From positions 496,001 to 560,000 of the forward strand of contig JAQYUZ010000004.1 of NCBI GenBank assembly GCA_033819885.1: 64,000 nt of DNA, given 5' to 3'. Below, in pieces: positions 1,119-58,706 of this stretch (its first letter is position 1; each line of letters opens with the position of its first letter). Under the pieces are notes generated by a model. It was not told where the DNA came from and did not search any database. It saw only the letters and a program-made list of their open reading frames with translations. Source of the stretch: Microbotryomycetes sp. JL201 (lineage: Eukaryota; Basidiomycota; Microbotryomycetes). The translations under genes and the position numbers were made by a program.

Positions 1119-4100
1119 TCAAGTCGGGTCTGCTTGTCCATCACTGGCTAAAGCCCCCGTCAAAGCAGAAGGTCGCGCCTGAGGACTGCGCGACACAAAC
1201 TCGCGAGCGCCAGCAGACAGATCAGAGTCGCCGCGGCTGACGGTGGCCCGGATCGCCTGTGGTAATGCATGCCGCGACGAAGGCGAGACGCCAGTGCCCA
1301 ATGTCGCGCCGGTCATGGGTCGTAGGTGCCCCGCTGGCCGAACGTTTGTTGGTGCTGCATGAGCCGGCACGAAGGATGATCGTGATGTGCTGGCAGTAAC
1401 TTGGTTGTGCGTCACATTTGGCATCGCCTCAAATGCTTCCCTGGCGTCCAGGTCGGCCTGCAGCTGATGTGCTTGCTGATCGGGCCACAGGGAGCGGCGA
1501 GCTGGCGAGCTGGCCAGTGAGCCTCTCTGCGGCGACGTCTGACCTCGTGGAGTGATGCCGTGTCCAGCCATCATCATCCTGGACAAGCCAGACTCGAACG
1601 CGTGAGATGCAGCAACGTCGTCGCGTCTGGATTCAGAGTGAGCCGTTTTGTATACGACAACGTCGTCCATTGCCTCGTCAGTGTCGTCTTCTCCATCCAA
1701 AGAAAGCTGCTCTGCTTGGCCGATCCGCATTGCTAAGTCGACTGGGTCGTCCTCGGTCAAAGTATCGCAGAGTTCGACTTCAGCGTCAGGTTCAAATGAC
1801 AGGCGCTCGAGCGGAAGCACTTTGCTCGGGGAAGCAAGTTGATCCAACGGCATGTCAAAAGCGGCTGCAATTTGCTTTGCGGCGAAAGCCACTTCTCCAG
1901 CCTCGCGTGCTTCCGGGCTAAGTTCATCCGCATGGAGAGGCACGACAAAGGCGTCGTGTTCGAGGCAGACCAACGATGACTGTTTGACGAGAGATCAGGC
2001 CTGTTCAGACCAAGGCAATCATCTGACTGACCTCTGAGTCTGCAACGAGCACAGCATCAGATTGCAGCTCGGCTATGCGCATCAACTCCTCCTCGTTCGG
2101 GTGGACTTGTTTGCCAACTTCTGCTGCGTCTGTCGGTATCCCGTGAAGTCGAGGTTTCGTGTCTCGCGTGCTGCGTCGCAACGGTGCAAAGCCAAGCAAG
2201 TCGACGTCTTCCTCTAGCCACACCCCTCCCTCTCTCGCGCTGGGAAGTTTGGCAATCGGGAAAGCGTCCTTGATGGCATTGTTGAAGTCTGCGTATGCGG
2301 TCCAGAACGAATCAATTGCCTGTTGCAAGGCAAAGCCATCGGTGTGATCCACGTCAAGTGAGCTGTCGACGGCGGTGTGGGGATCTTGGGCATCCTGCGT
2401 GGACGGTGGGGATCGTTGCTTGCTTTCTCGCATCTCGAGCCGCTGTTGCACCCTTGCAATGTATTCAAGGTTGCCCATGAGCCATTTACTGAGGATTCGC
2501 AACGCCGGCACCGTCCTCCGAAACACGGCACTGATGAGCTGAGCGAGCGGAATTTCTGCGCCGGAGTTAGTGTCGCGGCTGGCAACCACCAGATCAAGCA
2601 CTTCGGTCTGCCCGATGACCAGAAGAATGCGGTAAAATGATAAGACGTGGATCAATAGATGAGGTTCGAGATTGACGTGCGCGCTTTCTTCGGCCGTGCC
2701 TTTGGCTGATGCGAGGGAGAGTCACATTGAGAGCACTCATGTGAACGATGAAAACACTCACGCGGGCGGTAGGTACGAGCGTGCCACAGAGCCGAGATGC
2801 TCATCATGGCAACCTTCACCAGTGTCTCGGAAGGCAGCAATCGAGTTTCAACGGCGCGCCTGAACAAGTCTTGGGCGTACAATGAGACGGCCTCAATGTC
2901 TGCAAGCCTTTTTATGCATTTGCGACGGGATCGTCAGCGTGTATACAGGGCGTCTGACGTTTTCAACTCACCGCTCTTTTGAGAAGTAAATACCTTGAAG
3001 TGCGACGAAAGCGGCTCGGAATTTGACGCCATCATCGCCATCTGGCTCTCCTCCGTCGGCAGCAAACCACCTTGCGACTAGCTTTGCGAAAAGCTTTCCT
3101 AGGTTGATGCGAGCAGTAGCGAAAGGCGTCACGACGGCAAGCGCACGATAGTAATGGTACGCCGTGGACAGGTTATCGTTGCTGTACGTCGAGAGGACCG
3201 CTAGCTGATTCGATGGGTTCCCTGTACTTCTTTCATTTAGCGTCAAGCTTACATGGGTCATAGTTCACGATCGCACCGTCATCTGGCATGAGCAAGCGAG
3301 CTTGGTGGTAGCACTCTGCGGCCCGAGTAAAATTCTTTGTTCTATCGCCTCCATCAGGCAGCTTCGACTTGCCACGCTTGCGTCCGGGCGGAGCACCTTC
3401 CTTTGTCGGATGCGGGTCGCTGTATAGCTCACGGTACCTCGCAAGGTCGCCAAAATAGATCAAAGCCTTGTGCACGAGCGGCAGGGCGCGGCTGCGTTGC
3501 TTGCTTAGCTGGTCGATGTCATTCGGGGCGTCCGACGAAACCATGTCGACCGTCTCAACAATTATGCCGAGCGTTTTTAGGCCCGCCACATCGTCGTAGA
3601 ACAAGTTTGACGCAAGACGCTGCAACAGCACTCGGTAAAATTCTTCTTCTTGTGCTACGAACGTCCTGAATTTTTGCGAAAGCTTGCGGCGGGCTGTCGG
3701 GCCTGGTGGCGGTTGCGCGTTTGCAGCTTGTCCGCCGCGATCGCGCTTGGATTTTCGATGAGCCTGAGGAGCCTGTGCAATGGTCTTGTCCATCTCATTG
3801 AGTTTGTTTCGGTATGAGGCGAGCAAGCCATGAGTTGTTTCCAGCCAAAGGTTTGAGAGAGCGTCAAGTGCCGTTTTCGAATGAGAAGAGACGACGCTCG
3901 ACGCAGTCGACATGTGCCCGAAAGTGACTGGCTCTGATGCCTTTGATGAAGCGTTGTTTGGGGCTGCAGAGTCGAAAATGACTTGCAAGTATGCCCGGCG
4001 CAGACTGCCGTCCAAGAGATATCAGAGCCTGCCGCGGCGCGCATCTCCCCTTGGTCAGGATTAACTCACGCTTCTTTCTGAAACTCGACTTCACGATCCC

Positions 4101-4450
4101 ACGGGTCTGCCTGCTTGAGTGTTTGGCGCAGATCGAGCGCGAGCCCCTTGGCGTCCCTGACAACGCCGAACGGGCGTCAAAAGTCAGCGCTGATCGGCTG
4201 GAAGGCAGCCACAAGCGCACCTCAACATCGAACTCATACTTGTGCCTTGCTTGCGAGTCGACTCGCTGCGCCTGCTGGCCATGGGCGGCTGAGCCCCACT
4301 GGCCACGGCAACGGCGGCGTTGGCCATGAAGAGCGAGCTAGGCGAGATCAAGGCACTGTCGAGGCAGTTGGCTACCTGGACTGCTTCGGCATGCTGAAGC
4401 CGAGCAGGGGCGAGTCCGGTTGGTTCGAATGAAACCCCGCCGAGCGTCAT
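1119..4450 (-). CDS. EST1/SMG7-like protein (14-3-3-like and TPR region)
   Basis: This family binds phosphorylated UPF1 in nonsense-mediated decay, or telomerase RNA in budding yeast. The family core is clear: the motif PWDREVEFQKEALRRAYL, then a long helical stretch, then ALIYFGDLARYRELY, YHQARLLMPDDG and NPSNQLAVLSTYSND followed by the AYHYYRALAV helix. These match the 14-3-3-like domain and the adjoining helical region. The C-terminal third is acidic and serine-rich and looks disordered. At least seven exons are joined by short introns, for example 1980-2031. The join at about 3230-3280 uses a GTGCGA donor and a 55-nt intron, giving DDGNPSNQLA. The stop is TGA at 1119-1121. The first exon is unclear: the frame encoding HKYEFDVE has no ATG, so another intron lies upstream and the start near 4450 is a guess. 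The gene is divergent from HRD1, less than 100 bp away. Confidence 0.8.
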
Positions 4451-13747: not shown

Positions 13748-15975
13748 ATGTCTGCTGCAGCTCAAGGTGCAAATGCACCTGCTGCGTCGGCCGGCGTCCC
13801 CCGAGCGCCTGAACAACAGAGGCGGAACGATGGCGGATTCCTGTCGAGCCCACTAGCCAAGAGTCTGATGCAAGCGTTCGCGGTATGGCTTATCGTGAAC
13901 AACCTGTGTGCGTCTCACGATGGCGACATCGCACTGCTCAGAAGGTCTGGCAAAGAGCCTTCGCTAAGCTTGCCTCGCCAGCATCGTTTCTGCAGAATCG
14001 GAAAGCGCAACCGCAAACACCTGCAACCAACAATAGAACGGTATCAGCCATTGGCAATGCGACAGCATCAGGCGGGGCTATTCGTCCGCCGCAGTTGACG
14101 CTCGAGCCTCTCTGGGCAGAAGGCGCAGTCCTGGTACGCATCCGATTTTACAGAGCCCTTCTGTAGAGCCGAATCTGAAGGTCCGCATTAAAGGACGTTC
14201 TGGTCAAGCTGTCAACAGCGACCGATGGTCGAGTCGACTTTCAAGACGATAGTCTCCCGTCAGTCCGTTGGGACGGCGTCGAATACAAGAACAGCAAGTG
14301 GTCAAAGCAGTGGGACACTCTCGTAAATGTGCCTACATCTGTTCAGAAGAACGGCTCGCTCTGGGCAGACATTTTCATCGTGCCAACGGGAACGTCACCG
14401 GACACGTCGTCGCCACTGTACGAGCCCGAGCATCTGCACATTCGGAAGCGTGCGTATCGGCCACAAAGACTAAGCATGCGTCGCTGAATCATTATTGTAC
14501 AGTGCTGACAAGGTATCACGCTTACCGCAAGCCGAGGGTAACCAAGAACCTACTATCAAAAGGCAAAGAGACGCCCGAAGAGCTTGCCGCCGAAGCTGCC
14601 GAGATCGAGAGGGAGAAGAATGAGCCAAGGCAGATCGTCAGCTACTGGCACCCCAACGTGACTCTTGAACTCGTTTGTGGTTCAGGCAACCTCATGTATT
14701 CGGGATTGCCGCCCGTGTTGCAGCGACACGTTCATCGTGCCAAGGGCAATGAGACGAACGACAAGGGCAACGGGTATTTCTACCCGATCACCTATGCAAA
14801 GTGCGCCAGGAGAAAGGGACTAAATTCGAACAAAACGCTAACCTAGGCTTGGCAGCGACTTTTGGCTGCTGCGAGAACAGATGACGCCAGTCAACACGAC
14901 TACCCCGCGCCTGCCTTTGCGCATCACTCTCGGTCCTACGTCACATTGGAAGTGGCAAATCATGGCATCGCTCGACGAATCGTTCTCTCAGGCGGCAGAC
15001 AGCGGCGGCTCCAGTGGCGAGATGGACGAAGTCAAACGCATGCTGACCGAAACCAGTCCATGGCTGCTCATCACTACGACGATCGTCACAATACATCACA
15101 TGGTATTCGAGATTCTCGCTTTCACCAGCGACGTCTCGCACTGGCGCAAGAAGAAGGACAACTTGGTCGGAGTCAGCGTGCGCACCATTGTCACCAATGT
15201 CGTGGTGCAACTCATCATCCTGCTTTACTTGCTCGACAACAACGAAAACACGTCTTGGATGATCCTGTTCTCTTCAGGAACGGGTGTGTTGATTGAAGCG
15301 TGGAAAATCCCAAAGACCGTCGACATCAAGCTCGTGCCCAAGTCTGGCATCATCCCGTACCGCCTCGAAGTCCATGACAAACACAAGTTGACAGAAGAGG
15401 AGCTCAAAACGCAAGAGGCCGACAAGCTCGCGTTCAAGATCGTCGGCTATGCAACGGTGCCACTGCTTGGAGGCTACACGATCTACAGCCTGTACTACAA
15501 CGAGCACAGGTCATGGTACAGCTTCGTCATTACGACATTGACCATGTTTGTGCAAGCATTCGGTTTCGTGCAGATGCTGCCGCAGATCGTCATCAAGTGA
15601 GTTTGTAAGCCGAACACCACGGGGACACAGGCTGACTCGCTTGTGCATAGCTACAAACTCAAGTCTGTCGCACACATGCCCATGAAAGCTCTAACGTACA
15701 AATTTCTGACGACGATCGTGGACGACTTTTTCTCATTCATCATCAAAATGCCTTGGCTGCACCGGCTCGCTTGCTTCCGAGACGATGTCGTCTTTGTCAT
15801 TTTGCTTTACCAAATGTGGATCTACAAAACAGATTACTCTCGCGCAAACGAGTATGGTCAAAAGTTGACGGACGAGGCTGCCGAGGCGCTGTTGCAGAAC
15901 AAGGAAGACAAAGAAAAGGAAAAGGTGGCCGTCGATGCGAAAGGTAAAAAACTCGAATCTCGCAAAGACCGTTGA
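13748..15975 (+). CDS. CLPTM1-family multi-pass membrane protein
   Basis: Family of cleft lip and palate transmembrane protein 1, an ER/Golgi protein linked in animals to receptor trafficking and lipid scrambling. The start MSAAAQGANAPAASAG is followed by a first span, FLSSPLAKSLMQAFAVW. Conserved luminal parts are LTLEPLWAEGA, VEYKNSKWSKQWDTLV, LWADIFIVPTG, EPRQIVSYWHPNVTLELV and NGYFYPITYA. The membrane half contains SPWLLITTTIVTIHHMVFEI and SVRTIVTNVVVQLIILLYLL. Then come VGYATVPLLGGYTIYSLYY and KALTYKFLTTIVDDFFSFII, and the diagnostic FRDDVVFVILLYQMWIY. The lysine/glutamate-rich tail ends ESRKDR with TGA at 15973-15975. The stop lies only 31 bp from the stop of the convergent HSDL2-like gene. 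Confidence 0.9.
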
Positions 15976-16006: not shown

Positions 16007-17184
16007 TCATCGTTTCTTGGTTGTCGGATCCTCCTGCCTGAGTTTGGCGATCTCGTCCCTGACCCATTGAGCGATGAACAGATCTTCGTGCAACTCTTCG
16101 GCCGGCACATTGGCGTACTTGTCGAGCTGCTCCGAATTGTGACTGCGATCCCAATGGCGAGCTTAGCCTCGTCGGAGAGGAGTTTGGCGCTCGCTCACTC
16201 ACCCTAGTTCCCGTCTCATGAAGATTTCGTCGATTTCGAAATTGCCGCTGCAGCGATCAGTGGGTCAGCAACGTACAGAATTGAGGTTTTGGTCAGCTCG
16301 CAGCTCACTTATATGATGCCGCCGGCTTGTTGAGCATGCCAAAGGCTGCGTCACCTATGAATGACGGGTCACGAGCGTACTGCCGCCCTTCCTCTGACAG
16401 AATCAATCGAATCGCTTCGGTTGAGATGTACGTCAATGGCCAAAGAGCTGTCTCGTTGCATGTCGTCAGCATCTTGGGGGCGTCGCTTGATCAATGGAAA
16501 GGCACCAACCATTCACACCAACTTTGCCCTTGAGCTCGCCAGCAAGTCCGAGCGAGACGATCGACATGCCGAGCTTTGCCACTGCGTAGGCTGTCGCTGC
16601 GCCCAAGTGCTCTGGTGTCATCAAGTCGCGCAGTGGCGGTGACAGAGTCAAGATATGCGGATTCCGACCCTTGTCCGCAGATCGGAGAAGATGCGGTACA
16701 GCCGCCTTGGAGACCAAAAACGTGCCTCTCGAATTGATGGCGTTCATGAGATCATAAGTTTTGACCGATGTCTTTTGCGAGTCCGTCAGTGAGATGGCGG
16801 ATGCGTTGTTGATGACAATGTCGATTCCCCCAAACTTTGATGCAGTCTGTTCGATGGCTTGCTCAACCTGAGCAGAATCTCTGATGTCGACTACCAGCGG
16901 CAGGGCTTTACCACCCGCTCGCTCGACCTGTTCTGCTGCCGTGTGGATTGTTCCAGGCAGCTTTGGGTGTGGTTTGTCACTGTGCAAGTGCGAATGGTTA
17001 TGTTTAAAATGCGATGGTGAGCTGAAGCTACTGTCGTCTGGCGGGGCCCCGCTCGGCGCTGCACTCACGTCTTTGCCGCGATCGTCACGTTTGCGCCGGC
17101 ACTGGCGAGCTTTGTAGCAATTGCTAGACCGATCCCTCGGGATCCACCAGACACAAACACGGTCGGCGCGCGTGCGAGCGACAT
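16007..17184 (-). CDS. HSDL2-like short-chain dehydrogenase
   Basis: The start MSLARAPTVFVSGGSRGIGL shows the Rossmann TGxxxGIG-type motif and continues AIATKLASAGANVTIAAKT. Further family elements are ALPLVVDIRDSAQVEQAIEQ and FGGIDIVINNASAISLTD. HILTLSPPLRDL and the catalytic AYAVAKLGMSIVSLGLAGEL follow. The late segment AIRLILSEEGRQYARDPSFI and FGMLNKPAASY then NFEIDEIFMRRELG matches hydroxysteroid dehydrogenase-like protein 2. The animal SCP2 sterol-carrier domain is missing: the protein ends shortly after, with DEIAKLRQEDPTTKKR. A His-rich insertion (SHFKHNHSHLHSDKPHPKL) follows the first exon, unless part of it is intron. The stop is TGA at 16007-16009. Substrate unknown; the family is often peroxisomal or mitochondrial. 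Confidence 0.85.
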
Positions 17185-17680
17185 TGCCGGCGTCTACAAT
17201 CGCCGGTACTAGTCAAGCAGGTGTTCTGCCGACACACCCTCACTGCAGAAATGCTGAACGCGCCGCTGTCGGGACTATATAGGCAGCCCGAGATCGAGGA
17301 AGAGGCAGGGACCAACTGTTTGATTCGCTAGCGTCGAATCACGTGCCGCTGCCCAAAGGCAGCACGACAAATCTCGATTCAAGCTGGCTTTCAGCAAACT
17401 TTGACTGAAAAAAAAGTATTCTTTTGACCTCTGCATCAAGCGCGCATTGATAACGAACGGTTCGTAATAAAGCACAATTTTGCGCTCTCGCGACGAAGGC
17501 CCTCAGGAGGTCGTCGACCTGGTGTGCACAGCTTTTCGAGAAGCTGTGCTTTCATGTGCTTGGCTCGGCCTGCCGAACAGATAGCGGTGCGACGAGCGTG
17601 CACGAGGTTGACTCCTCGCGGAGTTGGGACCGTATCTTCATTGTGCAGGCAAACCTTCTCGTCTCGTTCCGATCACCCAC
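17185..17680. other. Divergent promoter region between HSDL2-like gene and gene A
   Basis: Nearly 500 bp between two divergent starts. It contains an A-rich run (about 17409-17417) and a short inverted stretch around 17530-17545 (CTTTTCGAGAAGCTGTG). I could not support a gene here. Confidence 0.45.
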
Positions 17681-19199
17681 ATGGCGCCGCGTTCTCGGTC
17701 GAGCTCGAGAAGGAGAGGTGACGCGAAGCCTCAGGACAGCCGGAATCTGTCGGTCCCCGGACACTACGACCGGACGGTTCGTGATTGAGGTTTCGACCAA
17801 AACCCGGCTGTGTGCTGACAGTCTTCCTGCCTCAGCAGTCCGCTTTGATATCGAGATCTTTATCTCAAGAAGATCTATCAGTGGCTGCGAATGAAAACCA
17901 CTCCGAGATTTGGTTGCCCCTCACCAAGCTTAAGGAGCAGGATGAACGCAATCGTCAGGCTTCGAATCATAGGGCAGTCCTCGCGTACGAGGCGGTTCTC
18001 ACTGCTCAATTTCGCGCTCGAGAGCTGAATAATCAACAGAGAATTTCTAGTGCGTCATATCGGAGGCGGAATTTCAAGTCGAGGCGAAGGCACTGATGCC
18101 CACCCCCTTCCACAGAGCAAGAATATAAGGAGGCGCTCGACCTTCTTGTAAGGCTCTCTCATGAGCTCGCAGACATGATCCGATTGGCTGTGCAACGGAG
18201 CTTTCAAGAAGGATCTGGGCAAAAGTTGACTAAGTTCTGGCGAGACGTCGCACGCCACGATACTAGTGTGAGTCTTTCGGAATATTCACAGAACCCAGGA
18301 CCACGAATATAAGCCAACCTTCCCCTATGTTTCCAGGCGGTCCGGCTCCTGCACCAGGACTCGAATCTCGCCTTGCCTGCCGAGCGAGTTAGAGATCTGC
18401 AAGACATCTGGCTGCCGTTGATCCTACACGACGAGATGCCAGGCATCGATAGACTTGCTCAAAATATTCAGCACTGCGCGGAAGCCTTGCACAACGGTAA
18501 ATCCGTGAATTGGGAAAAAATGTCACATTGCTGACGATCACCCTCCAGACGCCTTTGATTTTTCAACTCGCAACACGCTTATTTCTAAGCTTCAGAAAGA
18601 GCGTGATCTCTGGGCCAATGGTATCAGGGAGTTTTGTCCGCGAGAAGAGTCATTCTGGCAGCGGCTGTCGAACGACGAGCCCGAGGCGAGTGCAGTCTCT
18701 GGAACTTGACCTGCACCAGCTCACAACTTCGTGACAGGCTGTGGCAATGTTTCGAGCTGCAGTGCTTGGAGCTCAGAATGCACACAACAATCAGCGAGCC
18801 TCGAGACTGTTCCAGGCGCCTCCACCGCTTCCCAAAGATGATGGATATGTGCCGAGAGCACGTGTGAGTCCCGGTTGGCGAACATGCAGTGATTGAATGC
18901 AATGGCTTAGCTTATTCCTTCCTTTGCCCAGTCCCCGGGGATGGCCATCAATCCCGGAGCCCTACTTCATCAGTCGCAGCACCCACCGCGCATGTCCTCG
19001 TTCAATACAGACGTCTCCCTTCCGCTTCGTGGGCGGCTCGTACACCGAGAAATTGAAAACGCTCACAAATCGCGTCGCAACTCATCAGTAAGTCATAGCA
19101 AGCAGGTATCAGGAGCTTCTTGTTTTGATTAACACATCACTCGACCAGTCTGATCACGATCAATACCGAGATGTACACGAAAGAAACCTGTTCGGCTAG
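17681..19199 (+). CDS. Gene A: twin W-x-P-L/F-W module protein, unknown
   Basis: I do not recognise this protein. Eight exons can be joined with intact frame: 17681-17776, 17839-18049, 18116-18267, 18337-18496, 18549-18685, 18738-18863, 18932-19087 and 19149-19199, giving 362 residues. The N-terminus is basic and serine-rich (MAPRSRSSSRRRGDAKPQ). Two modules follow. Module 1 opens EIWLPLTKLKEQ and closes KLTKFWRDVARHDTSAVRLL. Module 2 opens DIWLPLILHDEMPGID and closes EESFWQRLSNDEPEAVAMF. Both are predicted helical with no signal peptide or membrane span. A proline-rich tail leads to the terminal exon SDHDQYRDVHERNLFG. The intron after exon 5 appears to use a GC donor (GCGAGT). Same strand and same architecture as genes B and C, so a tandem duplicate. 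Confidence 0.75.
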
Positions 19200-19438
19200 T
19201 GTCTGGCCTGTTGACAGTCCCCGCTCTTCCTGTGTATTCTATCTAGAGATTTTGTCCGAAGCCATAAACTCTTATTTTATCTCAAATGATGACTGATGGC
19301 CGAGTGAGCAGGATCGCAGCTGGTACGCAGTAAGATTTTCGTGCGGTGCAGCTCTAAACTCCTCGAAATTGATCCCGCGGAGTTTGGCATACCTCGCCAG
19401 AAGCAGGCTCAGCACTTTGGCTTGAGCCATTCAAAGCC

Positions 19439-21217
19439 ATGTCGACTCTCCACACGAGCGGTCGCAGGAAATCGCATCACTACCACCATGTGAACCCGCT
19501 TAGCTCCCATCCTACTTTTCGGGTAGGGTTTCTCTCCCTCCGTATCGCAGAGGCAGTCGAGCAACAGCACGAAACGAACAGGGGCAGGAGTCGTGAGGGC
19601 GAAAAGCCGTCACATGGCCTCATCACTGGGCATCATCACCTTGTATCAGAGCGAAATCATAGCGCAGGCGAGGCTTTCCACAAGAGCGACAAAGTAGAGT
19701 CCAGCTGAGTGGAACTGTTGAGTTGTCTTGAAACTGAGCACGTAACCACACAGGGCATTTCGCGATTGAATCAACTCAGGAAGGACGAACAAGAGGTTTG
19801 GCGTCCGCTCGAGCGGTGGCGCATGCCCATGGTTGAGGAATACGTCACCTTGTGCATGGTCTTGTCGATAGCAGAGAACGAGCTCCATGCGCACATACTT
19901 GACGGTAAGACTGACCGCGCCATCAATAATCAGCATAAAGCTGATGTACTTCCGCAGACAACAAGTGGCGTGTGCTATGTAGGGCAGCACTTGCGTACGC
20001 CATCGAGTACGCACAAGACATTCGTGATCGTGTCCAATTGCCCGAGGGGATCAAGTGGGACGCTTACTGGCTCCTTGTCCAGAATGGAGATGAGAAGGCA
20101 AGTTCAGGTGCACAGAATGGCCCATCCTGCGGCCGGAACGTTCCCAACTGATATTGAGATTTTATGTGGGAAATAGTGCAGGCTATCGCTTCTCGATGCC
20201 GCTAACAGAGCTCCTAAGCCGCAGACATTTGGTCCTCACTGGACCGATGACTACGAAACCGTTTGGGGGCCTCTTGCGAGCCGCAACGCTGTGCCGTCGC
20301 AGCTCATTGATACGTTGGACCAGTTTGCACTCGCCGAAACCACGACCATGGATGGCAAGTCGAGCTGCCCTTCGTCAGAAGTGGACTGTGCCAACTGTTG
20401 ACCTCTTCCAAACAGCTACTGTGCAGCGCAGAAGGACATTCGAGCTACAAGACGCGCTTCATGATCTTGCGGAAAAGATTATCTCCCATGTAGACATGGC
20501 ATTCAAGACTCGACCCGTATTCTGGAAGGCCGTCAGAGGAAATAAAGCCCAAGTTAGTGGTGAGCACGAACGGCGCGCTGTCTTCTTGCTGACAGCGATT
20601 CATCAGGCTGTCAATGAGATTGTTCGAGCCTCGATCAAAGCGTGCGGTCACCCGCCGCAGTCGCCCCGGTTCGTCAAAGAGGATCAGGCTGTCGACTTGA
20701 GTCGAGTTTCGCCAAGGAGCAAGCCTGATAAGGAAAACAGGTCCAGCGCATCGCTCCATCAATTGCATCACGATGACGGAAAGTTCTCGGGCAATTACAG
20801 CGACCACGAGATCGCTCAGGCGCGGGAACGACAAACTTCGAGCGCGCCAACCTCGCCGTCTGTGTTGGACGACGACTTTGGTATGCATTTTACGCAACCC
20901 CGCGGAAGCGTGCGACTGGACCCGCGCCAGTCAATAGTAGACCGTCTTACTCCTGCGAGCCTCCCTCACCTCACACAAAATGCCACTGCTCGGGGTTTCT
21001 CTACTAGACTCGGCGACGCCACTCGGTCCCACAAGCCCGACAGACCGACATTCACACAGATTAACTGGTCCTCTAGCGCGCGAAGAGCTCACGACATGAC
21101 TGCGGTGAGTTTATCAATGAACTGACACTGTTCTCAGAATTCTGACTTCCCGCTTCGTATTTGTAGCCTGACTCCTCAGCTTACAAAGACTCGCACGAAG
21201 CAGACTTGTTTGAATAG
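19439..21217 (+). CDS. Gene B: twin W-x-P-L/F-W module protein, unknown
   Basis: Second of three tandem relatives, function unknown. Frame-consistent exons are 19439-19522, 19754-19904, 19958-20097, 20177-20354, 20416-20552, 20607-21104 and 21167-21217, about 412 residues. The first exon, with a histidine-rich SGRRKSHHYHHVNPL, is the least certain because its intron would be 231 nt, long for this window. Module 1 opens EVWRPLERWRMPMVEEY and closes WDAYWLLVQNGDEK. Module 2 opens DYETVWGPLASRNAVPSQ and closes FKTRPVFWKAVRGNKAQAVN. Two introns have GC donors, GCAAGT at 20098 and at 20355. A 166-codon exon encodes a long polar, serine-rich tail. The terminal exon reads PDSSAYKDSHEADLFE, resembling the end of gene A. 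Confidence 0.72.
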
Positions 21218-21433
21218 CTTCCTTGTAAATTGATCTCATCACATTTGTCATGCCTGTATATCGCCCTGGGGTTTGTGCTTTGAGATAGACAATCTTTGAT
21301 GCAATACCGACCTGTCTTCTGGAGGGCAAGCTCAGCTGCAGGCTACATATTATGGAAGCCGGACCTGCACTGCGTCCGCCCCATTTGGTGCGAAAGTGGC
21401 TGCGCAGAAGAGTCCGAGGATCCGAGGACTTGG

Positions 21434-21481
21434 AAGAAGGCCACTGCCCCAATATAAGAAGGCCAGGGCGGTGGCCTTCTT
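21434..21481. repeat. Direct plus inverted 10-bp repeat upstream of gene C
   Basis: AAGAAGGCCA occurs at 21434-21443 and again at 21456-21465. Its perfect reverse complement TGGCCTTCTT lies at 21472-21481, leaving a 6-nt loop. A TATA-like AATATAAG (21451-21458) overlaps the second copy. The stem lies 31 bp before the ATG of gene C, so it could act as a DNA element or as a 5'-UTR hairpin. Confidence 0.75.
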
Positions 21482-21512
21482 TCTCTTTCCTTCTGTTTCA
21501 GACCGCATCAAT

Positions 21513-22887
21513 ATGCCACAAATCAGGTAGAAAACAGTTGATCAAGAGACTCTGGCTAAGCTCGATCCGCATGGATCTGCCACGAGCTTACAAGTATGAA
21601 TCCCGAACTATTGACTCCTGACTCGTAGCGGCGAAAGGCCAGTGCTGACTTTTGTTGAGCAGAATAACGGCTTGACGTATTTCAAGACTCCGAGCATCAT
21701 CACCGAAGATTTCAGAGTCTTGTGGCAACCGCTGAAACTCGCGATGGGTCACAAGCCTGTGCACGAGTGGGACATGTTTGTAACGCTGAGCGCCCGTCTC
21801 GACTTGGGGCGACAGCTCGGGTTATGGCAGGGTCAAGGTGAGTGATTCGTGTCAGCAGGAATGCATTTCTGACCACGCTGCCGTAGAATTAGGCTGGGAT
21901 CGAGCTTGCGACAACCTATGCGATTTCCTGCACGATCTCGCGAATTCGATCCGTCTTGAGCTTGACGCTCGCCTGAAAGCGATCAATCGTCCTGTAGCGG
22001 CATTCATGGAGTCGATAAACATTGCAAAATCCGAAAGGCGGACCATCCTCGGCGCCGTCGTTACGCGCGACCTTGCTAGCCTCCGCGAGGCGTACGTGAG
22101 AGTTGCCGGTTGGTGGAAAATGGACTTTTACCAGGTCATCCAGCATCTTGAAGGCAAAGGTGTCTTGCCAAAAGCGATCGTCAATCAAATCAAAATCTGC
22201 CGTACGGCGGACATCATGAAATCTTCTGACGGGCCAATGCCGAATGACGTAAATTACGACATATTAAATCTTCAACGCTCGTACAGTGCTAGCTACAAGA
22301 TCCACATGTTTGCGCAGGAGGTGGTGGCAGCCCTGACCAGAGCAAAGGGTTTTGATGATGAAAACTTCTGGAGTGGGCTCCGTGCGCGGCGATCCCAGGT
22401 GAGCTGAGAGAAGCGTAGATGCAGAACCACTTTGCTGACATCCCCTTTCAAGGCCATTGAGGCGCTGGTGCAGGCGGCGAAGACAGTCGCAGCTTCAACT
22501 GAGCACGACTTGGTGCATCGTGTCCGGACTCGAGCGGCTGGCGCGCGTCCTCCTGTTGTCTTTGCGCCTTCGGCGTCGAATGCAGCACAAGCTGTGGCCA
22601 AGTCACACCTCCGTAACAGCGAAGGTCCATTATCGACAGTGCATTCGGCTCCGAATCTGAGGATAAGCTTCTCGAACGGTTTCGTGTTGCCTCCTCTCGA
22701 GCTGCCGACGTCTCCAACCCGCAGCTCAACCTGGCCTGAGCAACAGAGCCAAACTCGTAATCCACGACGACACGGCATGAATGTCGGGCAGATGCTGGGC
22801 TGCGGACCGTGACCACGTTCACGCCGCCTCGTGAAGTTTGTCAAGCGTATGATCCGAGGCAGCGAGCTCGGCTCCGCTTTTACCTGA
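21513..22887 (+). CDS. Gene C: twin W-x-P-L/F-W module protein, unknown
   Basis: Third tandem relative, function unknown. Exons 21513-21526, 21629-21837, 21887-22398, 22453-22782 and 22837-22887 give about 371 residues. Module 1 opens FRVLWQPLKLAMGHKPVHEW and runs through CDFLHDLANSIRLELDARLK. Module 2 begins at AGWWKMDFYQVIQHLEGKG and closes FDDENFWSGLRARRSQAIEA. The large 512-nt exon fuses the second half of module 1 with module 2, so two introns present in A and B are absent. If the last intron is not removed, the frame stops at 22812 instead. I prefer the spliced form because its terminal exon (FVKRMIRGSELGSAFT) is exactly 51 nt, as in A and B, although its sequence is only weakly similar. 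Confidence 0.7.
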
Positions 22888-23259
22888 AATTTGCTTTGAT
22901 TTCTGTAGCAGACGCTGTTACTACTTCTGTACTCAGTTCTCTCTATATTCTCCTGAACCCAATCCATATTGTCCTGCAGGCGCTTTGGCTGCGGAATGTC
23001 TCGCTCTCTCTCGTTCAACGTAACTCGGACTCACGCGCGACGCTCTCGAGGGCGAGAAACAGGCCGGGCAGGTCTTCCGGAGCTCATATCTCAGTGAAAC
23101 AAGGTCCGACCGGCCTCGGGTGGCCTGTACGAGGATGGAGCTGCCGAGGTCAGGGAGGCGCGCCTCAGCGTCCGGCGGCGAGGCTCTGCGTGCGTACACT
23201 GCATGCGCGTGCGCGCGTTCAACTGACAAGTGTCGTCTGACCTTTCAGCATCACCGCGC
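22888..23259. other. Spacer before the first GT90 gene
   Basis: Holds the 3' flank of gene C and the promoter of the GT90 gene. A short spliced 5' leader is possible, since TGACCTTTCAG at about 23238-23248 looks like a branch site plus acceptor just upstream of the ATG. No independent gene is supported. Confidence 0.4.
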
Positions 23260-25940
23260 ATGGCCGACGGCGGTCTGTTTGGGAGCAGCTCGAGCAGCGC
23301 CGTACCCGCCTCGCCACGGATCAGCTACAGCTCGCACCAGAATCCGTCGGCAGACCGTGGACCGCAAGCTGCTCGGATCGCAGGCTCGTCAGGCCGACAA
23401 TTGACACGCAGAATGTCTGGCTCGACGCCAGGCGCAAGCTTGCCCCAAAAGGTTCGCAACTCGTGGCTGAGCAGGCTCATCGGCTCAAACACGTCAAGTA
23501 CGCCTCCACCAGTAACTCCGGGCAGCAGTGCGTTCCCGAGCAACCCGCTCCGCACACCGCGACCGTTCTACGACGCCAGAACGTATGATGGCCGGCCCGT
23601 ATCGACCTTGGGACTGGTCAGAGACATTCTCTTGCGACCGTTCATGCTGTTGTTTCGCAGAGGACCGCTGCTGCCCCTGGTCATGCTTTTGATGACGCTC
23701 GTGCTCATCCTCACGTACTCGACTCATCCGTCCACGCAGTCCGTCAAGCGCAAGGTTCAAGGCGCCGTCGGACCGTACATCCCTCAGCGTGCCGCAGATG
23801 CCATCAGCTGGCGCAGCTCGCGGTGGAGCCAGCAACAGCCTTGGAAGGCCGGGAACGGCCTCGTTCCAGACCCTGACGAAGATGACTTGTCGGACCTGAG
23901 TGGACCAGGCAAGAAACCGACCAAGATTACAGCTGAATCTGCCTCTCTGCCATCGCCGCGCAAAGATGGACGTTTGATTCTTGAACCAGGCAAGAAGCAT
24001 CCTATCCCTGTGCTCATGGAACGGGCAAAAAAGGAGTGGGAGAGGCTCAAGGCGAGGCAGAGTAAGACGTTTGCTCAGGCAGTACGCGAGTACGAGCGTC
24101 GTTACGGCCGCAAACCACCGGAAGGTTTCGATCAGTGGTCAGTCCGACTCTTTTTTGATTCTGATTAGGCTCCACTCATCGATCGAGAGTGCAGGTACGC
24201 GTTTGCAAAAGCCCACAAGGTCTTGATGATCGACGAGTTTGATATGATCGACAAGGATTTATTGTTATACCGAGCGTTTGCCCCGCCGACATTTCGAAAG
24301 CGCGTCAACCATCTCAAAGACACATTCGACACAATCTGGACGATCGAAGTCAACAAAGGCAAAATCGTTCGCGGGGGACAGCTCAAAGACCACGACCGAG
24401 CGAAAGGCGTTGAAAAGCTCATGGAACGATTCCTCAAGCATTTGCCGGACCAAGTGCTTGTGTATAACGGCCACGACAATGCCAGGATAGCCATCGCCGC
24501 TGACGAGAGGGATCGACTTGAGACGCTCGCTCGCAAGGGAGAATGTAAGCGAGAACCATCTTGAACAGGAAGGGTGTCAAGCTGACGCAAGCTACATTCG
24601 ACAGACGACACCGACTCGGAACCGCCGTTCGAGCCAAAGCTGAAAGGTCAAGAGCCGCACTGGGGCATGCCTGTCTTTTGTCCGCCAGGCTCGGCCGTGC
24701 GCGAGCCCACGTTTGATTACGGCTGGGCATCCATGGAATCCACTGGTCTTGAGATGCCCGACGTGGAGGAGGGCACTATCGGCTCGCTTGTCGACAATTT
24801 CAAGTCGTACATGAATATTTGCGAAAACCCGCAGTATCGTCATTTCCACTGCACCTCGTCGTGGGTGTACCAACACCATCCTACGCCCGTACTGCCACTG
24901 ATCACGCCAGGCGTGCAAGCGACTCTGGCCGACATTCACGGCCTGATTATTGAGCAATTCGACCTCGACAATCAGCACGACCCAACTTGGGAGGAGCGCG
25001 CGTTCACGTCCTTGCAATGGCGTGGTCAAACAAGTGGACCTTTGTGGGAAAAGGTCGTGCCCTGGCGATCGACCCAACGCGCTCGCTTGCATTTGTTGTC
25101 CCACCAAGAATCTGGCTCGCGCACGATTGTCTTGACAGACGGTAACGACGTCATGAGAACGGAAGAGGTTCCGAACTATAGGCTCAACCCGTTGTTTTTG
25201 GACGCGGGCATGGTCGGACCGGCCGTGCAATGCGTCAAAGAAGACGGCACTTGCGACGAAATGGAACGAGTGTTTCAAGGGTACGACAAGCGGATTAGCT
25301 TTGATCGCGCTTCATTGTACAAATATGTTCTCGGTCAGTACTGTTCTGCCGCTGCACAATGACGTCTCAATGGCTGACTGCCAGCGCGACAGACATTGAC
25401 GGCAACAGTTGGTCTGGACGATTCCGGCGGTTGATGATGTCGAACGCGGCCGTAGTCAAGGCGACCATCTTTCCCGAGTTCTGGACGGTGAGCTGAGCTT
25501 CTTCTTTGCTGACAAGAGATCGGCGCTGACACTGAAGGTGTGGCTTGTAGGATTGGATCGTTCGTATGTCTACTGGCAGCGTTTCTGATATCGTTCCGAG
25601 AGCTGACGCGGACTTTGCGCAGCCTGGCTCCATTTTATTCCAATTCAAGTCGACTACAGCGACATGTGGGACGTCATGGCATTCTTCAGGGGCGGCTTGC
25701 AAGGCGAAGGCGCGCACGATGACCTCGGTCGACAAATTGCCGAAGCTGGCAAGGACTGGGTCAAGCAATGCTTCAGATGGGCAGACTTGGAGGCATATCA
25801 ATTTAGGTCAGTGCGAGATTCGTGGTTGTGAGATTGATCTTAGCTGACATTCGTGATCGCTCAGGCTCAATCTCGAGTACGGCAGGCTGTACAACGATGA
25901 AAAGCTTCCCGGATCGAACGACTTTACTGGAGATCCGTAA
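23260..25940 (+). CDS. GT90 (CAP10-type) glycosyltransferase, copy 1
   Basis: Type II Golgi membrane enzyme of glycosyltransferase family 90. In basidiomycetes this family includes CAP10 and the beta-1,2-xylosyltransferase CXT1. The start [13 protein letters not shown] leads into a polar cytosolic tail of about 130 residues. A signal anchor around [20 protein letters not shown] follows. The luminal domain has [29 protein letters not shown] and [20 protein letters not shown]. It continues with [26 protein letters not shown] and [36 protein letters not shown] and the final [13 protein letters not shown] complete the domain. The order and the [11 protein letters not shown] motif are typical of the family. 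At least six exons; stop TAA at 25938-25940. A second GT90 lies 12 kb downstream. Confidence 0.9.
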
Positions 25941-26265
25941 GTTGTATTGTTGTCTAATGAAGACCACTGCTCACCCACCGAACGTTGCTCGCGAACAGCT
26001 CTATCGAACCAAAATGGGACGGAACGATCAAACTCTGAGCGTCATGTTTTACGAATCTCATCACTGGTTCTGTTCTCGCATCTCTGGTCTGGTTTCGCAT
26101 CTCCAATCGAATTTCTTTGCATCCCACAAATACCCGTATTTTCATTGTGTAGACTGGCTAAGTGTTTTCATCTCTCACTTTTGTAGAACGAACCAAACTG
26201 AAATACATTCAACAACGTGATTGCGATATTACAATGAGATTAGTGCGAGTGTAGGTGCATTTGCC
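25941..26265. other. Convergent 3' spacer
   Basis: A relatively T-rich region between the stops of the GT90 gene and the NAPE-PLD-like gene, presumably holding the 3' ends of both transcripts. No gene is seen. Confidence 0.5.
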
Positions 26266-32298: not shown

Positions 32299-35200
32299 TC
32301 AAACGGACGTTTTTGACATGTCTACGTGCGAAAAGCGTGCAGAATAGTGCACATGTCAGGCAAAGCGATTCCTAGAAAACAACTGAACCAACTTACAATA
32401 AGACAACAAGTTGATCTGATCTTTGTGCAACGTCGTTCGACCGACCAAGTCGTACACTTTTTCTTGGTCACGCAAGACGCTATGAGCGTCAACGAGGCAT
32501 TGCACGCTCGCTCGACGCAATTCAGAGTGCGAGTCGTTAAGTCCCTGAAATACGTCGACATCGGTCAGACGTAGCACAGGTTAGGTTGGAGATGAGCGGA
32601 AACTGACCCTCTTGACGAGCTCTGCCCTCTTTGGCAACTCATCCTCGAGTATCTCTTTCGGCAACTTTGCAAACAGCCTGCCGATCAATCTCAAACCCAA
32701 AGCGAAAGCACGTGCGATCTCAGGTGTGATGTGACCGTCATTCTTGAAATCGAGGTACTGGACCAATGCGGATGATAAGAGTCCAAGCGTCAAAAGAGGT
32801 TCGGACCGGTCGGTTACAGTTCTGCCAATTTCCTCAGTTGCTGCAACGATCTGCCGAGGGATAGGTCGATCAGCAATCAAGTGAGTAGACTGGCATCACC
32901 CAAACGCTCACCGAACGGGATGAATCCTCGCGCAAGGAGAGCAGCAGCTCGAACAGGGTAGTCTCTTCACCTGCAAGACAAGGCAATTGATGCTCGACGA
33001 GGCTAGCAAGGAGTCTGAGAGCCGTTTCATGAGTCGTGGGGTACTGCGAGACCAAGCGCAGGTCAGTCGTCAGACTTGTTCAAGATCCGCGCTCGCTCAC
33101 ATCTCCCGTTTTCTTCGAGAGCATCTCTGTCAATGCTGCAAATGCTTTGGCGAATGTTTTGTCTCGGGTCCAAAAGTTTGCGTCTGACTCTTCTTGCCGT
33201 CTTTGAGACGGTGACGCTTCACTCTCGTTTTCATCGTCTTCGACAACCGGATATCTTCGCGACAGGTCCATGAGCTGTTCGAGCTCTTCGGCAGAGACGG
33301 TCTGACTCATGAGGCGCGCGATCAAACCGTCTGCATTTTGTGCGTCTGCGTTTGATTCTGCCGCTTGACCTTGTGTTCGCACTATCAGTGGATAATAGCA
33401 TCGATCGACGCGTGAAGCTCACTCTGACTTTTGACTGTCCACCAGTCGCTGCCTTTGTCCGACAGGCCAAAGGTCTCGACATTTCTTCCATCCGGACTAT
33501 CATTAAACACGTCAGATTGCCGGACAGAGGCGACATGCCTCGTTGCAACCGCTGGAGTCGAAAGCTGACTGGCGGGTATGGGTCCATGTTCTGTATTCGC
33601 AAGCGTTCCTACATGGAGGTCATGATGAGACTGAGAGGAGCCGTCCGGTGACCTGTGAAGACGATGCGCGCCGATGGCGACGGGTATGTGAGACGTTCTT
33701 CGGCTCGCTGTCGGAGACGAAGGCGAAGATTGCAAATGAGGCCGTTCCTGTTTGAACAAGGGCGTGGATGCCGACGAGCTCGGAGTTGCTTGTGTATTGC
33801 GTGGAGATGAGCTTGTAGCTCGTTCTGACGACGGAGTCGATACCGTCGCTGCAGCGACATCTTTGATGGTGTCTGCAGCTGCGTGAGCAGCCAGTTGGGC
33901 TTCCATTTCTTGCTCCTTCTGAGCCTTTTCTCGCTTCGCCTGCAACATCATCTCACGAACACTCGGACGAGTCGTCTTGACCGGTGCAGATGCACTCTGT
34001 GCTCTGGACACTGCCGGCTTCGGATCGTTGGCTGATGTCGAGCTCGATTGCTTGCGAGGATCGCTCTTGTCTAGCTGTTTGCGACTTGTCGAGTCGAGCG
34101 AGCAAGAAATCTTGTCTGCCAATCTTGACCAAATATCTTGGACGAGCCAAAACGTCGTCCGGCTCGTCTCTTTGACGCCGCTATTGGGGTCCGACAGGCC
34201 ACGCTTGAGCATCTGTTCGATCTCGCCCAGCCCGCCTGAAGTCTCAATGGCGTGCTGACTGTGTTCGCCGTGGACCTTGACGAGCGTTTGCAAGTGTGCG
34301 GCGGCGTATTGGCGGGCAGAAGCGTTCTTGTCCTGCATGACTAACGCGAGCTGCTGTATCGTTTGGAAATGGTACCTCGAGTTGGTGATCAGGGACGTGA
34401 CAGTCGCTTGTGAAGCAGTCGCAACGATCTTTTTCGTCTGTCCTGCCATGCCCAGACAGTGGCAGAGAAAAGGCTCAAGAAAGTGGTGGTCCAATGCAGA
34501 ACCAAAAGCGTCCGACAGCTCGGCCATGAGTTGAAGTGCAGAAATGGCCAAGGTCGTCCTGAGCGAGGACGACTGATGAAGACGATCAAGTCAGTCCGGA
34601 TTCCAACAGAGCCGTTGCTCCACAGAGCTCACCGTCTTGATCATGCCCTCTTCTACTAAGCGCAAATCGGCCAGGAAGGCGTCCTTGAACTGCGTTGGAG
34701 CGCCGCCTTTGATCAAGCCTCGCAACCGAGCTACACTCTTGTCTCGTGAGACCCAGTTGTGCTCCGTTTCTTTGCCTTCGAAGCAAGGTCTCATCTGCTC
34801 GATTTCTGAATGTAGATCTCGCTCGTTTGCAACGTATACAGGACCTATTTCTGCCGGTTGCTGATGGACGGCGGCAGGATCTGTCGGGAATGCGGCCGCA
34901 GGAAGGTTTGCAACGAGTGACGCGGGAGACGGCGGCCGTGGTCGAGGGCGTGCGTCCTGGGAGCTGGTATCTTGTACAGTACTGTTCATCTCATTGTCTG
35001 CGCTCAGCGTCTGTTCGCCACCGCCGAGAACGGCGGCCAAGATCGTATCTTGGAGTTTTTTGTTGACTTCTAACTTGAGCATTAGCTTTTTCAGGTCTGC
35101 TCTTGCTGCAGCAGACACTGTTGGCGCGCTAAAGATTGATATAGTTGAGGATAAAGCGAGAGAGCGTACAGTCGGATCCGGGTCGCCGAGCAGCGGCAGC

Positions 35201-36032
35201 AACAAGGGCGTGAATGGTCGCAAGGGCGTGATAAGGCTGCCATCCTCGCTCTGCCTGATTGTCACAAGAAACAATATAGCCTGGAGACTCGGACTGTGAG
35301 CTGAGCGTACGAGTATGTGCGAGGTGGCGAGCGAACGGCTGACCTGTTCGCGCGCTTTAGCGTTCTTGCTCTGGAACGCATGCTCCTGAATCCGTTGCTC
35401 CACGAGTTGCCAGGACGTATCTTTGAGCTGTTGATGTGGCGCCGGCGGTGCGAGCTTGGCCGTCAATAGCAGACTGGCCCTCGCTGCGGCTACGATAGCT
35501 TCTCTGGCTGCGTCCCTTACGCCCTGTTTCGAGTCTGCTAGCTTTTCTGTTGGTAGTAAGGTAGCGAGAGTCGATTTGAACTCGTGGTCGAGCCTGGCGG
35601 CGTGGTGGACCGAGCTCGGCGGCCTGTGCTCGCCATGCGTGCCGTCGCCCGTGCCAACGTCGACATGCGCAGCGCGACTGAACAAGTGAGGTAGTGTTTG
35701 AAGTGCAGCGGATACGACGTGTTGGTTGTTGTGGCGCAGGTGCGGCTTGACGAGTTGACTGAGTCGGTCGAGGTCCTCGTCGGTGAGCGCCTGCACGTGA
35801 GACGTCGGTCACGGCCAGCGTCTCGGCCTTTGAAGCAACAACGTACCTGCTGCCTGTCGCCAAGCAAGTCGCGGATGGCGTGCAAACCCTGTATTCGCCG
35901 CTCGTTGTCTGCGAGCGGATCGGAGTGGTAAGAGTGGAACAGCAGTGAGCATGCATCGTATACAAAGTCAGGGGCAAGGTCAGAGCCCTCACCTTGGGAC
36001 GCCAACTGCTGCTCGAGGCTGGCGAGGTCCAT
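32299..36032 (-). CDS. CLASP/Stu1-type microtubule-associated protein
   Basis: Microtubule plus-end and spindle protein with TOG domains. The start MDLASLEQQLASQGEGSDLA leads into helical repeats: LVKPHLRHNNQHVVSAALQT, SKQGVRDAAREAIVAAARAS and a VEQRIQEHAFQSKNAKAREQ segment. The diagnostic CLASP N-terminal TOG element follows as LHSEIEQMRPCFEGKETEHN, WVSRDKSVARLRGLIKGG and KDAFLADLRLVEEGMIKTV. Then TLAISALQLMAELSDAFGSA and FLEPFLCHCLGMAGQTKKIV continue that domain. A serine- and basic-rich linker with MLQAKREKAQKEQEMEAQL leads to C-terminal helices SELRRASVQCLVDAHSVLRD. The final exon is probably short (YMSKTSV, TGA at 32299-32301), reached through a GTAAGT donor. Without that splice the protein would end about 60 bp earlier. 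Divergent from ARG8 with 114 bp between the starts. Confidence 0.88.
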
Positions 36033-57305: not shown

Positions 57306-58706
57306 ATGGCGAGCGGTCGCCAGGATGAGCTCGCGACATTCCTAGAACGAAGCAAGAGAGACTTTATGCAAGATCTGAATGCTGGCCACCCGCTTGTCAA
57401 CTGGACAGTCAGTGTCGGCAACGAGGCTGGTGGCAAGTTGGTTGACGCCGGCAGCATGTGATTGCATCTACTGATGCCGCTACGGTCCCCCTCCAGATCT
57501 CGACTCTCTGGTCTCTGCGGTGGCGTATGCCTACTTTGCTCAACAGATCAGTCAGGCGACGACTCGCTTCGTTGCGCTCGTCCAGACTGCTCGAAGTGAC
57601 CTCGCTTTGCGCCCCGAGAACGAATTTGCGCTTTCGAACGCACAAATCGATGCTGAAAAGCACCTTCTGTGCCTCGACGACTTGCCCAATGGTACACTGC
57701 CACAGCTGGGCGCGGTCAGGCTCGCTCTTGTCGACCACAATGCCATGCTCTCTTCCGTGTTCGGGCCGGATGACACACGGGTAACAGCAGTCATCGACCA
57801 TCATGCGGACGAAGGCCGTCACATGCACGCTTCGCCAAGGTTGATTCAAATACCTACAGGCAGCTGCACCTCACTCGTCGCGACCTACTTCTTACCTCTT
57901 TTGCCCGCGACCGCACACATGTCCTCATCCCTCGCAGACTTGCTCTTAAGCGCAATCCTAATCGACACCAACCTGAAGCCCTCGACTGCAGGCGGAAAAG
58001 CGACAGATACGGACCTTCGCGCCGTGAGACTCTTGTCGCCCTTCTCGAGCTTTGTCGACGGCGCCGAGGGCAGCGCTGCTGCTGTCGGAGGCGACGTGAC
58101 GGCGACCCTACTGCAGGTTGGACGCTTGCTGCAAGCGAAAAAGTCTGACGTTGCATGGATGTCGGGTCGGGACTTGCTCCGGAGAGACTATAAAGAGTAT
58201 CAACACGACGCGCAGTCGCTCAAATACGGTTTGGCTACAGTCCCGGTCAGTTTCCGTTCTTGGATCGACAAAGATGACAAGAGGTATGGCTGGGAGGGAG
58301 TCGAGCGAGACTGTCGGGCGTGGATGGAGGAAAGACATCTAGATTTTCTCGGCGTGCTGACATCGTTCGAGGAGGTGGCGCCGGCGGGAAAGAACAAGGG
58401 TGCAAGGGCACGAGAGCTATACCTACACGTTGGCGGCAATGACTCGACGAGCGAGCGATTGCGCAACATTCTCTACCCGGGTCTCGAGGCGGATGCAGAT
58501 TTGCGACTTGGACCCTGGTTTGGCGGAGATCTGTCGGGCGAGCCTGGATTTGACAAACGATGGCGCCTCTGGCAGCAAGGTGAATTAAATACTTTGTAAG
58601 AACGTGGGCTTGCGCTGACTTCTCCTGTCGCTCCGAAACAGTGAACGCGAAAGCAACTCGAAAACAGGTGGCACCAGCGATAAAACACTTGCTAGATACG
58701 GCTTAG
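57306..58706 (+). CDS. PPX1: Exopolyphosphatase
   Basis: DHH-superfamily enzyme that removes terminal phosphate from polyphosphate. The start MASGRQDELATFLERSKRDF is preferred over an upstream hydrophobic frame because family members begin shortly before the first motif. Motif I, SVGNEAGDLDSLVSAVAYAY, is assembled across an intron near 57428-57496. Further motifs are AVRLALVDHNAM, VTAVIDHHADEGRHM, GSCTSLVATYFLP, SAILIDTNLK and the DHHA2 part FRSWIDKDDKRYGWEG. A final intron from about 58580 to 58641 joins WQQ to VNAKATRKQVAPAIKHLLDT, ending TAG at 58704-58706. Unspliced, the frame would stop at 58599 and lose the conserved ATRKQ end. Confidence 0.9.

What the first reader, a model, noticed from the sequence alone, without database searches (positions are those of the whole stretch)
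17681..22887. Three tandem genes encoding an unrecognised twin-module protein family
Genes A, B and C lie head to tail on one strand and each encodes two copies of a helical module of about 100 residues. Module openings are EIWLPL, DIWLPL, EVWRPL, ETVWGPL, RVLWQPL and the weaker AGWWKM. Module ends are KFWRDVARHDT, SFWQRLSNDEP, AYWLLVQNGDE, VFWKAVRGNKA, NFWSGLRARRS and the weakest (C module 1) AAFMESINIAK. A segment of A-x(3)-hydrophobic character follows most of them (AVRLL, AVAMF, AVNEI, AIEAL). I know no family with this signature. No membrane span, enzyme motif or nucleic-acid-binding motif is visible, so a scaffold or interaction role is only a guess.
Basis: partly seen in the sequence, partly recalled or inferred. 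Interest (0 to 1): 0.85.

Follow-up and report, generated by a model that had tools for sequence, protein, structure and literature searches.

The report
Private fungal tandem twin-module gene family
Three neighbouring genes of a little-known basidiomycete fungus each seem to encode two copies of the same helical building block, at matching intron positions, and resembled nothing in the databases searched; what they do is unknown.

Summary
Genes A (17681-19199), B (19439-21217) and C (about 21352-22812) encode six copies of one module. This signature occurs 4 times in 284 kb of the contig, both strands, always in this locus. A and B share intron phases and a 51-nt last exon (p 2e-5); C keeps a subset. 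A gene finder trained on neighbouring DNA supports C, partly B, A weakly, and reads through one of B's introns. The organism is Microbotryomycetes sp. JL201. No significant match in Pfam, NCBIfam, PDB sequences or 5.8 billion proteins, nor further copies at BLAST sensitivity. A middling model of one module is four helices without a fold match. Best reading: a lineage-restricted, fast-diverging tandem family of soluble helical proteins; an adaptor role is inferred only. Orphan families are common in fungi, so interest is moderate.

The parts
17681..19199 (+). Gene A, 8 exons, 362 aa: 17681-17776, 17839-18049, 18116-18267, 18337-18496, 18549-18685 (GC donor), 18738-18863, 18932-19087, 19149-19199
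   Evidence: open spliced frame, phases 0,1,0,1,0,0,0; coding score weak
17899..18354 (+). Module A1, approximate limits (EIWLPL ... FWRDVARHDTS | AVRLL), with a phase-1 and a phase-0 intron
   Evidence: border intron also used by the finder
18394..18790 (+). Module A2, approximate limits (DIWLPL ... FWQRLSNDEPE | AVAMF), with a phase-1 and a phase-0 intron, the latter with a GC donor
19439..21217 (+). Gene B, 7 exons, 412 aa: 19439-19522 (uncertain), 19754-19904, 19958-20097 (GC donor), 20177-20354 (GC donor), 20416-20552, 20607-21104, 21167-21217
   Evidence: the finder meets the sites 20354, 20416, 21104 and 21167 but reads through the intron 20553-20606 and splits the tail exon
19784..20195 (+). 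Module B1, approximate limits (EVWRPL ... YWLLVQNGDEK | CRLSLL)
   Evidence: only in the relaxed form of the signature
20249..20650 (+). Module B2, approximate limits (TVWGPL ... FWKAVRGNKAQ | AVNEI)
   Evidence: best similarity to C2 (z 6.4)
21352..22812 (+). Gene C: 21352-21387 (predicted first exon), 21663 or 21666-21837, 21887-22398, 22453 or 22474-22812; both ends uncertain
   Evidence: finder +23.5 bits, hand model without first exon +26.5 bits; phases 0,1,0
21711..22070 (+). Module C1, approximate limits (VLWQPL ... FMESINIAKSE ...), phase-1 intron kept, border intron absent
22090..22490 (+). Module C2, approximate limits (AGWWKM ... FWSGLRARRSQ | AIEAL), middle intron absent, phase-0 border intron kept
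19149..19199 (+). Last exon of A, 51 nt, SDHDQYRDVHERNLFG-stop
   Evidence: ungapped match to the last exon of B, 7 of 16 identical, p 2e-5
21167..21217 (+). Last exon of B, 51 nt, PDSSAYKDSHEADLFE-stop
20607..21104 (+). Ser/Thr/Pro-rich, probably disordered tail of B (A and C have shorter tails)
   Evidence: sequence; disorder inferred by eye

Best explanation
A, B and C are a real family of three tandem paralogues. An ancestral gene held one helical module with a phase-1 intron inside and a phase-0 intron at its end. That unit was duplicated inside the gene with its introns, and the twin-module gene was then copied in tandem; C later lost the two middle introns. Each protein is soluble and intracellular: a short N-terminus (basic in A and B), two all-helical modules of about 100 residues whose conserved W/PL opening and FW end probably pack the helices together, a disordered tail, and (in A and B) a conserved C-terminal peptide, Y[RK]DxHExxLF[GE]. 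The most likely mechanism is an adaptor: the modules dock on partner proteins, and tail and terminal peptide recruit or regulate. Shown: module homology, intron congruence, shared terminal exon, no significant match in the databases searched. Inferred: duplication order, packing role of the aromatics, cytosolic place, adaptor role (about 0.3 on its own).
For: Border signature 4 of 4 in the locus in 284 kb. Intron phases A 0,1,0,1,0,0,0; B 0,1,0,1,0,0; C 0,1,0. Terminal exons of A and B of equal length, phase and similar sequence. WxPL clustering 5 of 16. FW-anchored 23-residue segments of A1, A2, B1, B2, C2: 10 of 10 pairs with p <= 0.0037, though the anchor was chosen on the motif and C1 was left out. 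Finder: C +23.5 bits with splice sites equal to mine at 21837, 21887 and 22398, and in A the intron FWRDVARHDTS|AVRLL. Modelled frame best for the whole reading frame of A, B and C and in 12 of 18 exons. No significant match in Pfam, NCBIfam, PDB sequences or 5.8 billion proteins, where a control from the same window found 542. No signal-peptide-like or membrane stretch. Helical models.
Against: With splice terms my models score -15.6 bits (A), -14.6 (B; +4.4 without its first exon) and +26.5 (C); in A only 3 of 8 exons prefer the modelled frame. The finder reads through the border intron of B2 (20553-20606) as coding in both runs, skips A and B module 1 at default settings, and joins B module 2, C and the next gene into one 18-exon model. 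3 of 16 modelled introns have GC donors against 23 of 342 in the finder's own predictions (p 0.10). The protein database holds proteins of JL201 yet gave no hit of about 227 to 721 aa, so no such protein seems to have been annotated at these lengths. Whole-protein A-B similarity is z 1.6. No function was tested.
Confidence: 0.7

Rival explanations
1. A divergent branch of a known helical domain family (for example an adaptor, kinetochore, trafficking or transcription-complex domain) that has drifted beyond sequence detection; function as in that family. Compatible with the tandem history above.
Against: No significant Pfam, NCBIfam or PDB sequence match; best Foldseek E in PDB 3.1. Three tandem copies would be unusual for core complex subunits (inference).
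Confidence: 0.35
2. Only C, or B and C, are live genes; A (and perhaps B) is a decaying copy.
For: A scores as non-coding on the species model (exon terms sum to about -7.5 bits); GC donors in A and B.
Against: A has an open frame through both modules, the exact border signature twice and a terminal exon conserved with B; no stop or frameshift had to be passed to read it.
Confidence: 0.2
3. One larger gene: B and C exons belong with the downstream gene from 23249.
For: The finder at default settings joins 20084-26038 into 18 exons. A fused annotation over 721 aa would also explain the missing hit in the deposited proteome (inference).
Against: A and B end in similar stop-bearing exons; run on 21200-23100 alone the finder ends C at 22812.
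Confidence: 0.1
4. Chance: the reader stitched look-alike peptides out of non-coding DNA.
For: Low coding scores for A and B; several module pairs not alike.
Against: Signature and WxPL statistics, held-out profile ranks, C clearly coding.
Confidence: 0.04

Closest known systems
Taxonomically restricted (orphan) tandem gene families of fungi (general kind, recalled; no call)
   Same: adjacent, strongly diverged paralogues, no relatives found, no known domain
   Different: six copies of one exon-pair module with congruent intron phases make the history unusually readable
Helical bundles in general (top rows: P450 BM3 helices, flagellar export-apparatus chain, WipA helices)
   Same: helix hairpins of similar length in the C2 model
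Proteins built by internal duplication of exons (general kind, recalled; no call)
   Same: each copy carries introns of the same phase at the same place
   Different: middle intron phase 1, border intron phase 0, and C lacks two of them

Membership tests
Any Pfam-A family | score above the curated gathering cut-off | tested here: not met
   3 proteins (C without its ends) and 6 modules; best E 0.013, 16.1 bits against a cut-off of 23.9 (SGS, 1 of 6 modules)
Any NCBIfam family | match above the curated cut-off | tested here: not met
   0 of 3 members match even at E up to 1
A sequence family with a solved structure | significant profile match to a PDB chain | tested here: not met
   best E 0.044 (Rop) with the module profile, 0.25 (CqsB4) with the protein profile
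Known fold of any kind | structural match well above background | tested here: inconclusive
Lineage-restricted tandem gene family | adjacent homologous genes | tested here: met
Lineage-restricted tandem gene family | no relatives outside the lineage | tested here: inconclusive
   none at E <= 10 among 4051 and 7721 candidates, but candidates must share 5-residue words and be about 227 to 721 aa; fungal genomes could not be searched directly
Lineage-restricted tandem gene family | no further copies in the genome | tested here: inconclusive
   protein searches find only the locus plus one hit at E 0.52 judged chance; border pattern with TTCTGG and GT donor: 15 places, 3 in the locus, 12 elsewhere, one of which (C34:224067) was not examined
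Secreted effector family | N-terminal signal peptide | tested here: inconclusive
   maximum 10-residue hydropathy near the N-terminus -0.43 (A), -0.09 (B), 0.68 (C), so none is visible; but N-termini of B and C are uncertain and no signal-peptide program was run
Adaptor or scaffold protein | binds partner proteins | not testable with these tools
   no experiment

The most novel reading that the evidence does not exclude
A new protein domain, seen so far in one fungus only: a four- to five-helix module with a WxPL opening and an FW-x9 end, paired in every member and tandemly multiplied into a private locus under rapid divergence, as expected of a system of conflict or self-recognition inside this Microbotryomycetes lineage.
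Probability: 0.3. Interest if true: 0.6.

Novelty: new member of a known kind. Interest (0 to 1): 0.4.

Why it matters
Six diverged copies of one module with congruent introns let one ask how a domain of unknown origin arose and spread, in a fungal class with few studied genes. If the fold is new it adds a domain family; if it is known, it shows how far such a domain can drift. Orphan gene families are common, so the case is instructive rather than startling.

Tried and rejected
Known-domain searches gave only sub-threshold matches (SGS, HH_signal, FhuF, PH_CERLI1, DUF6117, Rop, an alpha-mannosidase, CqsB4); no Pfam family matched more than 1 of 6 modules, and I take them as chance. AlphaFold of the 170-residue exon of C alone: pLDDT 47, helical, not searched. 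AlphaFold of module C2 with five half-module rows: pLDDT 69.5; Foldseek against PDB and viral models and VIA-align listed only generic helical chains. Viral contigs: 41 pattern stretches, no relative. Possible paralogue at C20 (E 0.52): antisense to what by my reading of the letters is an aminotransferase gene; rejected. Border pattern elsewhere in the genome: the tool's reversed-pattern control gave 6 and 2 places against 11 and 4. Of the 12 places outside the locus, 4 (C12, C14, C24, C46) have a stop within the nine codons; L039, L040, L041, L043 and L044 lie in regions with other predicted proteins, judged by eye, without family search; L045 gave no gene prediction; C34:318557 is not among the hits, which covers it; C34:224067 was not examined. 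A first gene finder degenerated into one giant gene and was dropped; the second, with other penalties, is used. A first signature scan had an off-by-one and found nothing anywhere; corrected. One background script failed on a file name. Literature: 0 papers for 'Microbotryomycetes sp. JL201', for 'Microbotryomycetes' with 'JL201', and for 'Microbotryomycetes' with 'orphan genes' and 'gene family'; no paper was read.
Full report
Setting. The window is C34:496001-560000 of a 17.15-Mb, 92-contig assembly. A control search with the frame 57475-58596 (DHH/DHHA2) found a protein named for Microbotryomycetes sp. JL201, 100% identical over 89% of the query, on a contig of 576927 bases, the length of C34, so the organism is that basidiomycete (taxonomy). 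Neighbours of the locus include a CLPTM1 gene (14253-15597) and a short-chain dehydrogenase (16469-17212, minus strand); the downstream frames 23227-24165 and 24586-25359 have no Pfam match. ARAGORN and Rfam at its gathering scores find nothing in the window.

Gene models. I joined exons by hand from the forward frames. A has 8 exons and 362 aa. B has 7 exons and 412 aa; its first exon is uncertain (donor 1.0 bit, 231-nt intron). C has 360 aa in the form with exon 21352-21387 and the 22453 acceptor. Intron phases are 0,1,0,1,0,0,0 in A, 0,1,0,1,0,0 in B and 0,1,0 in C: each module of A and B holds a phase-1 intron in its middle and a phase-0 intron just after its FW motif, while C keeps only the first and the last of these four. 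A and B both end in a 51-nt exon, SDHDQYRDVHERNLFG and PDSSAYKDSHEADLFE, 7 of 16 identical, p 2e-5 by shuffling. I saw no such exon in C.

Is it more than chance? The border signature ([FY]W, nine residues, donor GT or GC, intron of 45 to 95 nt, acceptor, A[VI]xx[LFIM]) was scanned on both strands of 284 kb with splice scores learned from neighbouring DNA. It occurs four times, at 18235 (A1), 18653 (A2), 20520 (B2) and 22366 (C2), and nowhere else; fifteen other spacings gave one hit in total, also in the locus. Without the A[VI]xx[LFIM] constraint there are 13 distinct places, 5 of them in the locus, B1 being the fifth. The signature was read off these modules, so the fair test uses one as template and counts the other three (p about 4e-6). 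[IVL]WxPL occurs 16 times in six frames of the 284 kb, 5 of them in the locus. Plain similarity is modest: of 15 module pairs B2-C2 has z 6.4, B2-C1 4.2, A1-C1 3.3, A2-B2 2.7, A1-A2 2.3, and the other ten are below 2; whole proteins give A-B 1.6, A-C 2.3, B-C 3.6. Held-out profiles rank A1 3rd, B1 49th, B2 50th and A2 331st of 7086 ORFs with the other modules set aside; C1 and C2 were untestable.

Are the genes real? A gene finder of my own was trained on 210 kb of the same contig outside the window (a first attempt failed). In the window it gives long models over the CLPTM1, CLASP, EST1 and DHH genes (with Pfam). In the locus it supports C, including the phase-1 and phase-0 introns, but takes for the last border an acceptor 21 nt further on than the family alignment suggests. 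It finds part of A across the intron FWRDVARHDTS|AVRLL, and parts of B, where it reads through the border intron 20553-20606, which is in frame and free of stops. My full models score -15.6 (A), -14.6 (B, or +4.4 without its first exon) and +26.5 bits (C). On a simple codon score the modelled frame is best over each whole reading frame and in 12 of 18 exons, but in A in only 3 of 8. At default settings the finder joins B module 2, C and the next gene. Such a fusion may explain why the database, which holds JL201 proteins, returned nothing of about 227 to 721 aa for A, B or C; that is inference. Three of 16 modelled introns have GC donors; the finder itself used 23 of 342 (p 0.10).

Relatives. 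None at E <= 10 in 5.8 billion proteins with B alone (4051 candidates) or with the A/B/C alignment (7721), whereas the control found 542 at E <= 0.001, the 120 listed including Microbotryum, Rhodotorula, Sporobolomyces and Rhodosporidiobolus. The search needs shared 5-residue words, so distant relatives are not excluded. In the own genome, A, B, C and a consensus half-module find only the locus, apart from one hit judged chance. The border pattern with TTCTGG and a GT donor finds 15 places, 3 of them in the locus (A2 has a GC donor and is missed by design); the reversed control pattern finds 8. None of the 11 other places that I looked at seemed a member, and one was not examined.

History. 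A and B share the full four-intron twin layout and B2 resembles C2 best, so internal duplication probably preceded gene duplication, and C lost its two middle introns. No tree was built; the modules are short and diverged.

Verdict. The family reading is well supported for C and B2, less directly for A and B1; the function is open. As a kind it is a lineage-restricted tandem family; whether its domain is new waits for a confident fold.

Noticed in passing
C34:286001-496000 (training stretch, L038, L019-L037, L012): The self-trained finder uses GC donors in 23 of 342 introns despite a 6-bit penalty; GC-AG introns may be common in this fungus. Not checked against transcripts.
   Followed up: partly
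window 20553-20606: The border intron of B module 2 is 54 nt, in frame and free of stops; the finder reads it as coding, and retention would add 18 residues between FW-x9 and AVNEI.
   Followed up: partly
window 22399-22473: Two in-frame acceptors 21 nt apart (exons from 22453 or 22474) at the end of C module 2; use of the second, the finder's choice, drops AIEALVQ.
   Followed up: no
L041 (C28, contig end): Long open frame that reads like a copia-type retroelement polyprotein (my reading, no family search).
   Followed up: no
window 1119-4327, 32299-36032, 57306-58706: Ordinary conserved genes: EST1-like, CLASP-like and DHH/DHHA2 exopolyphosphatase.
   Followed up: partly
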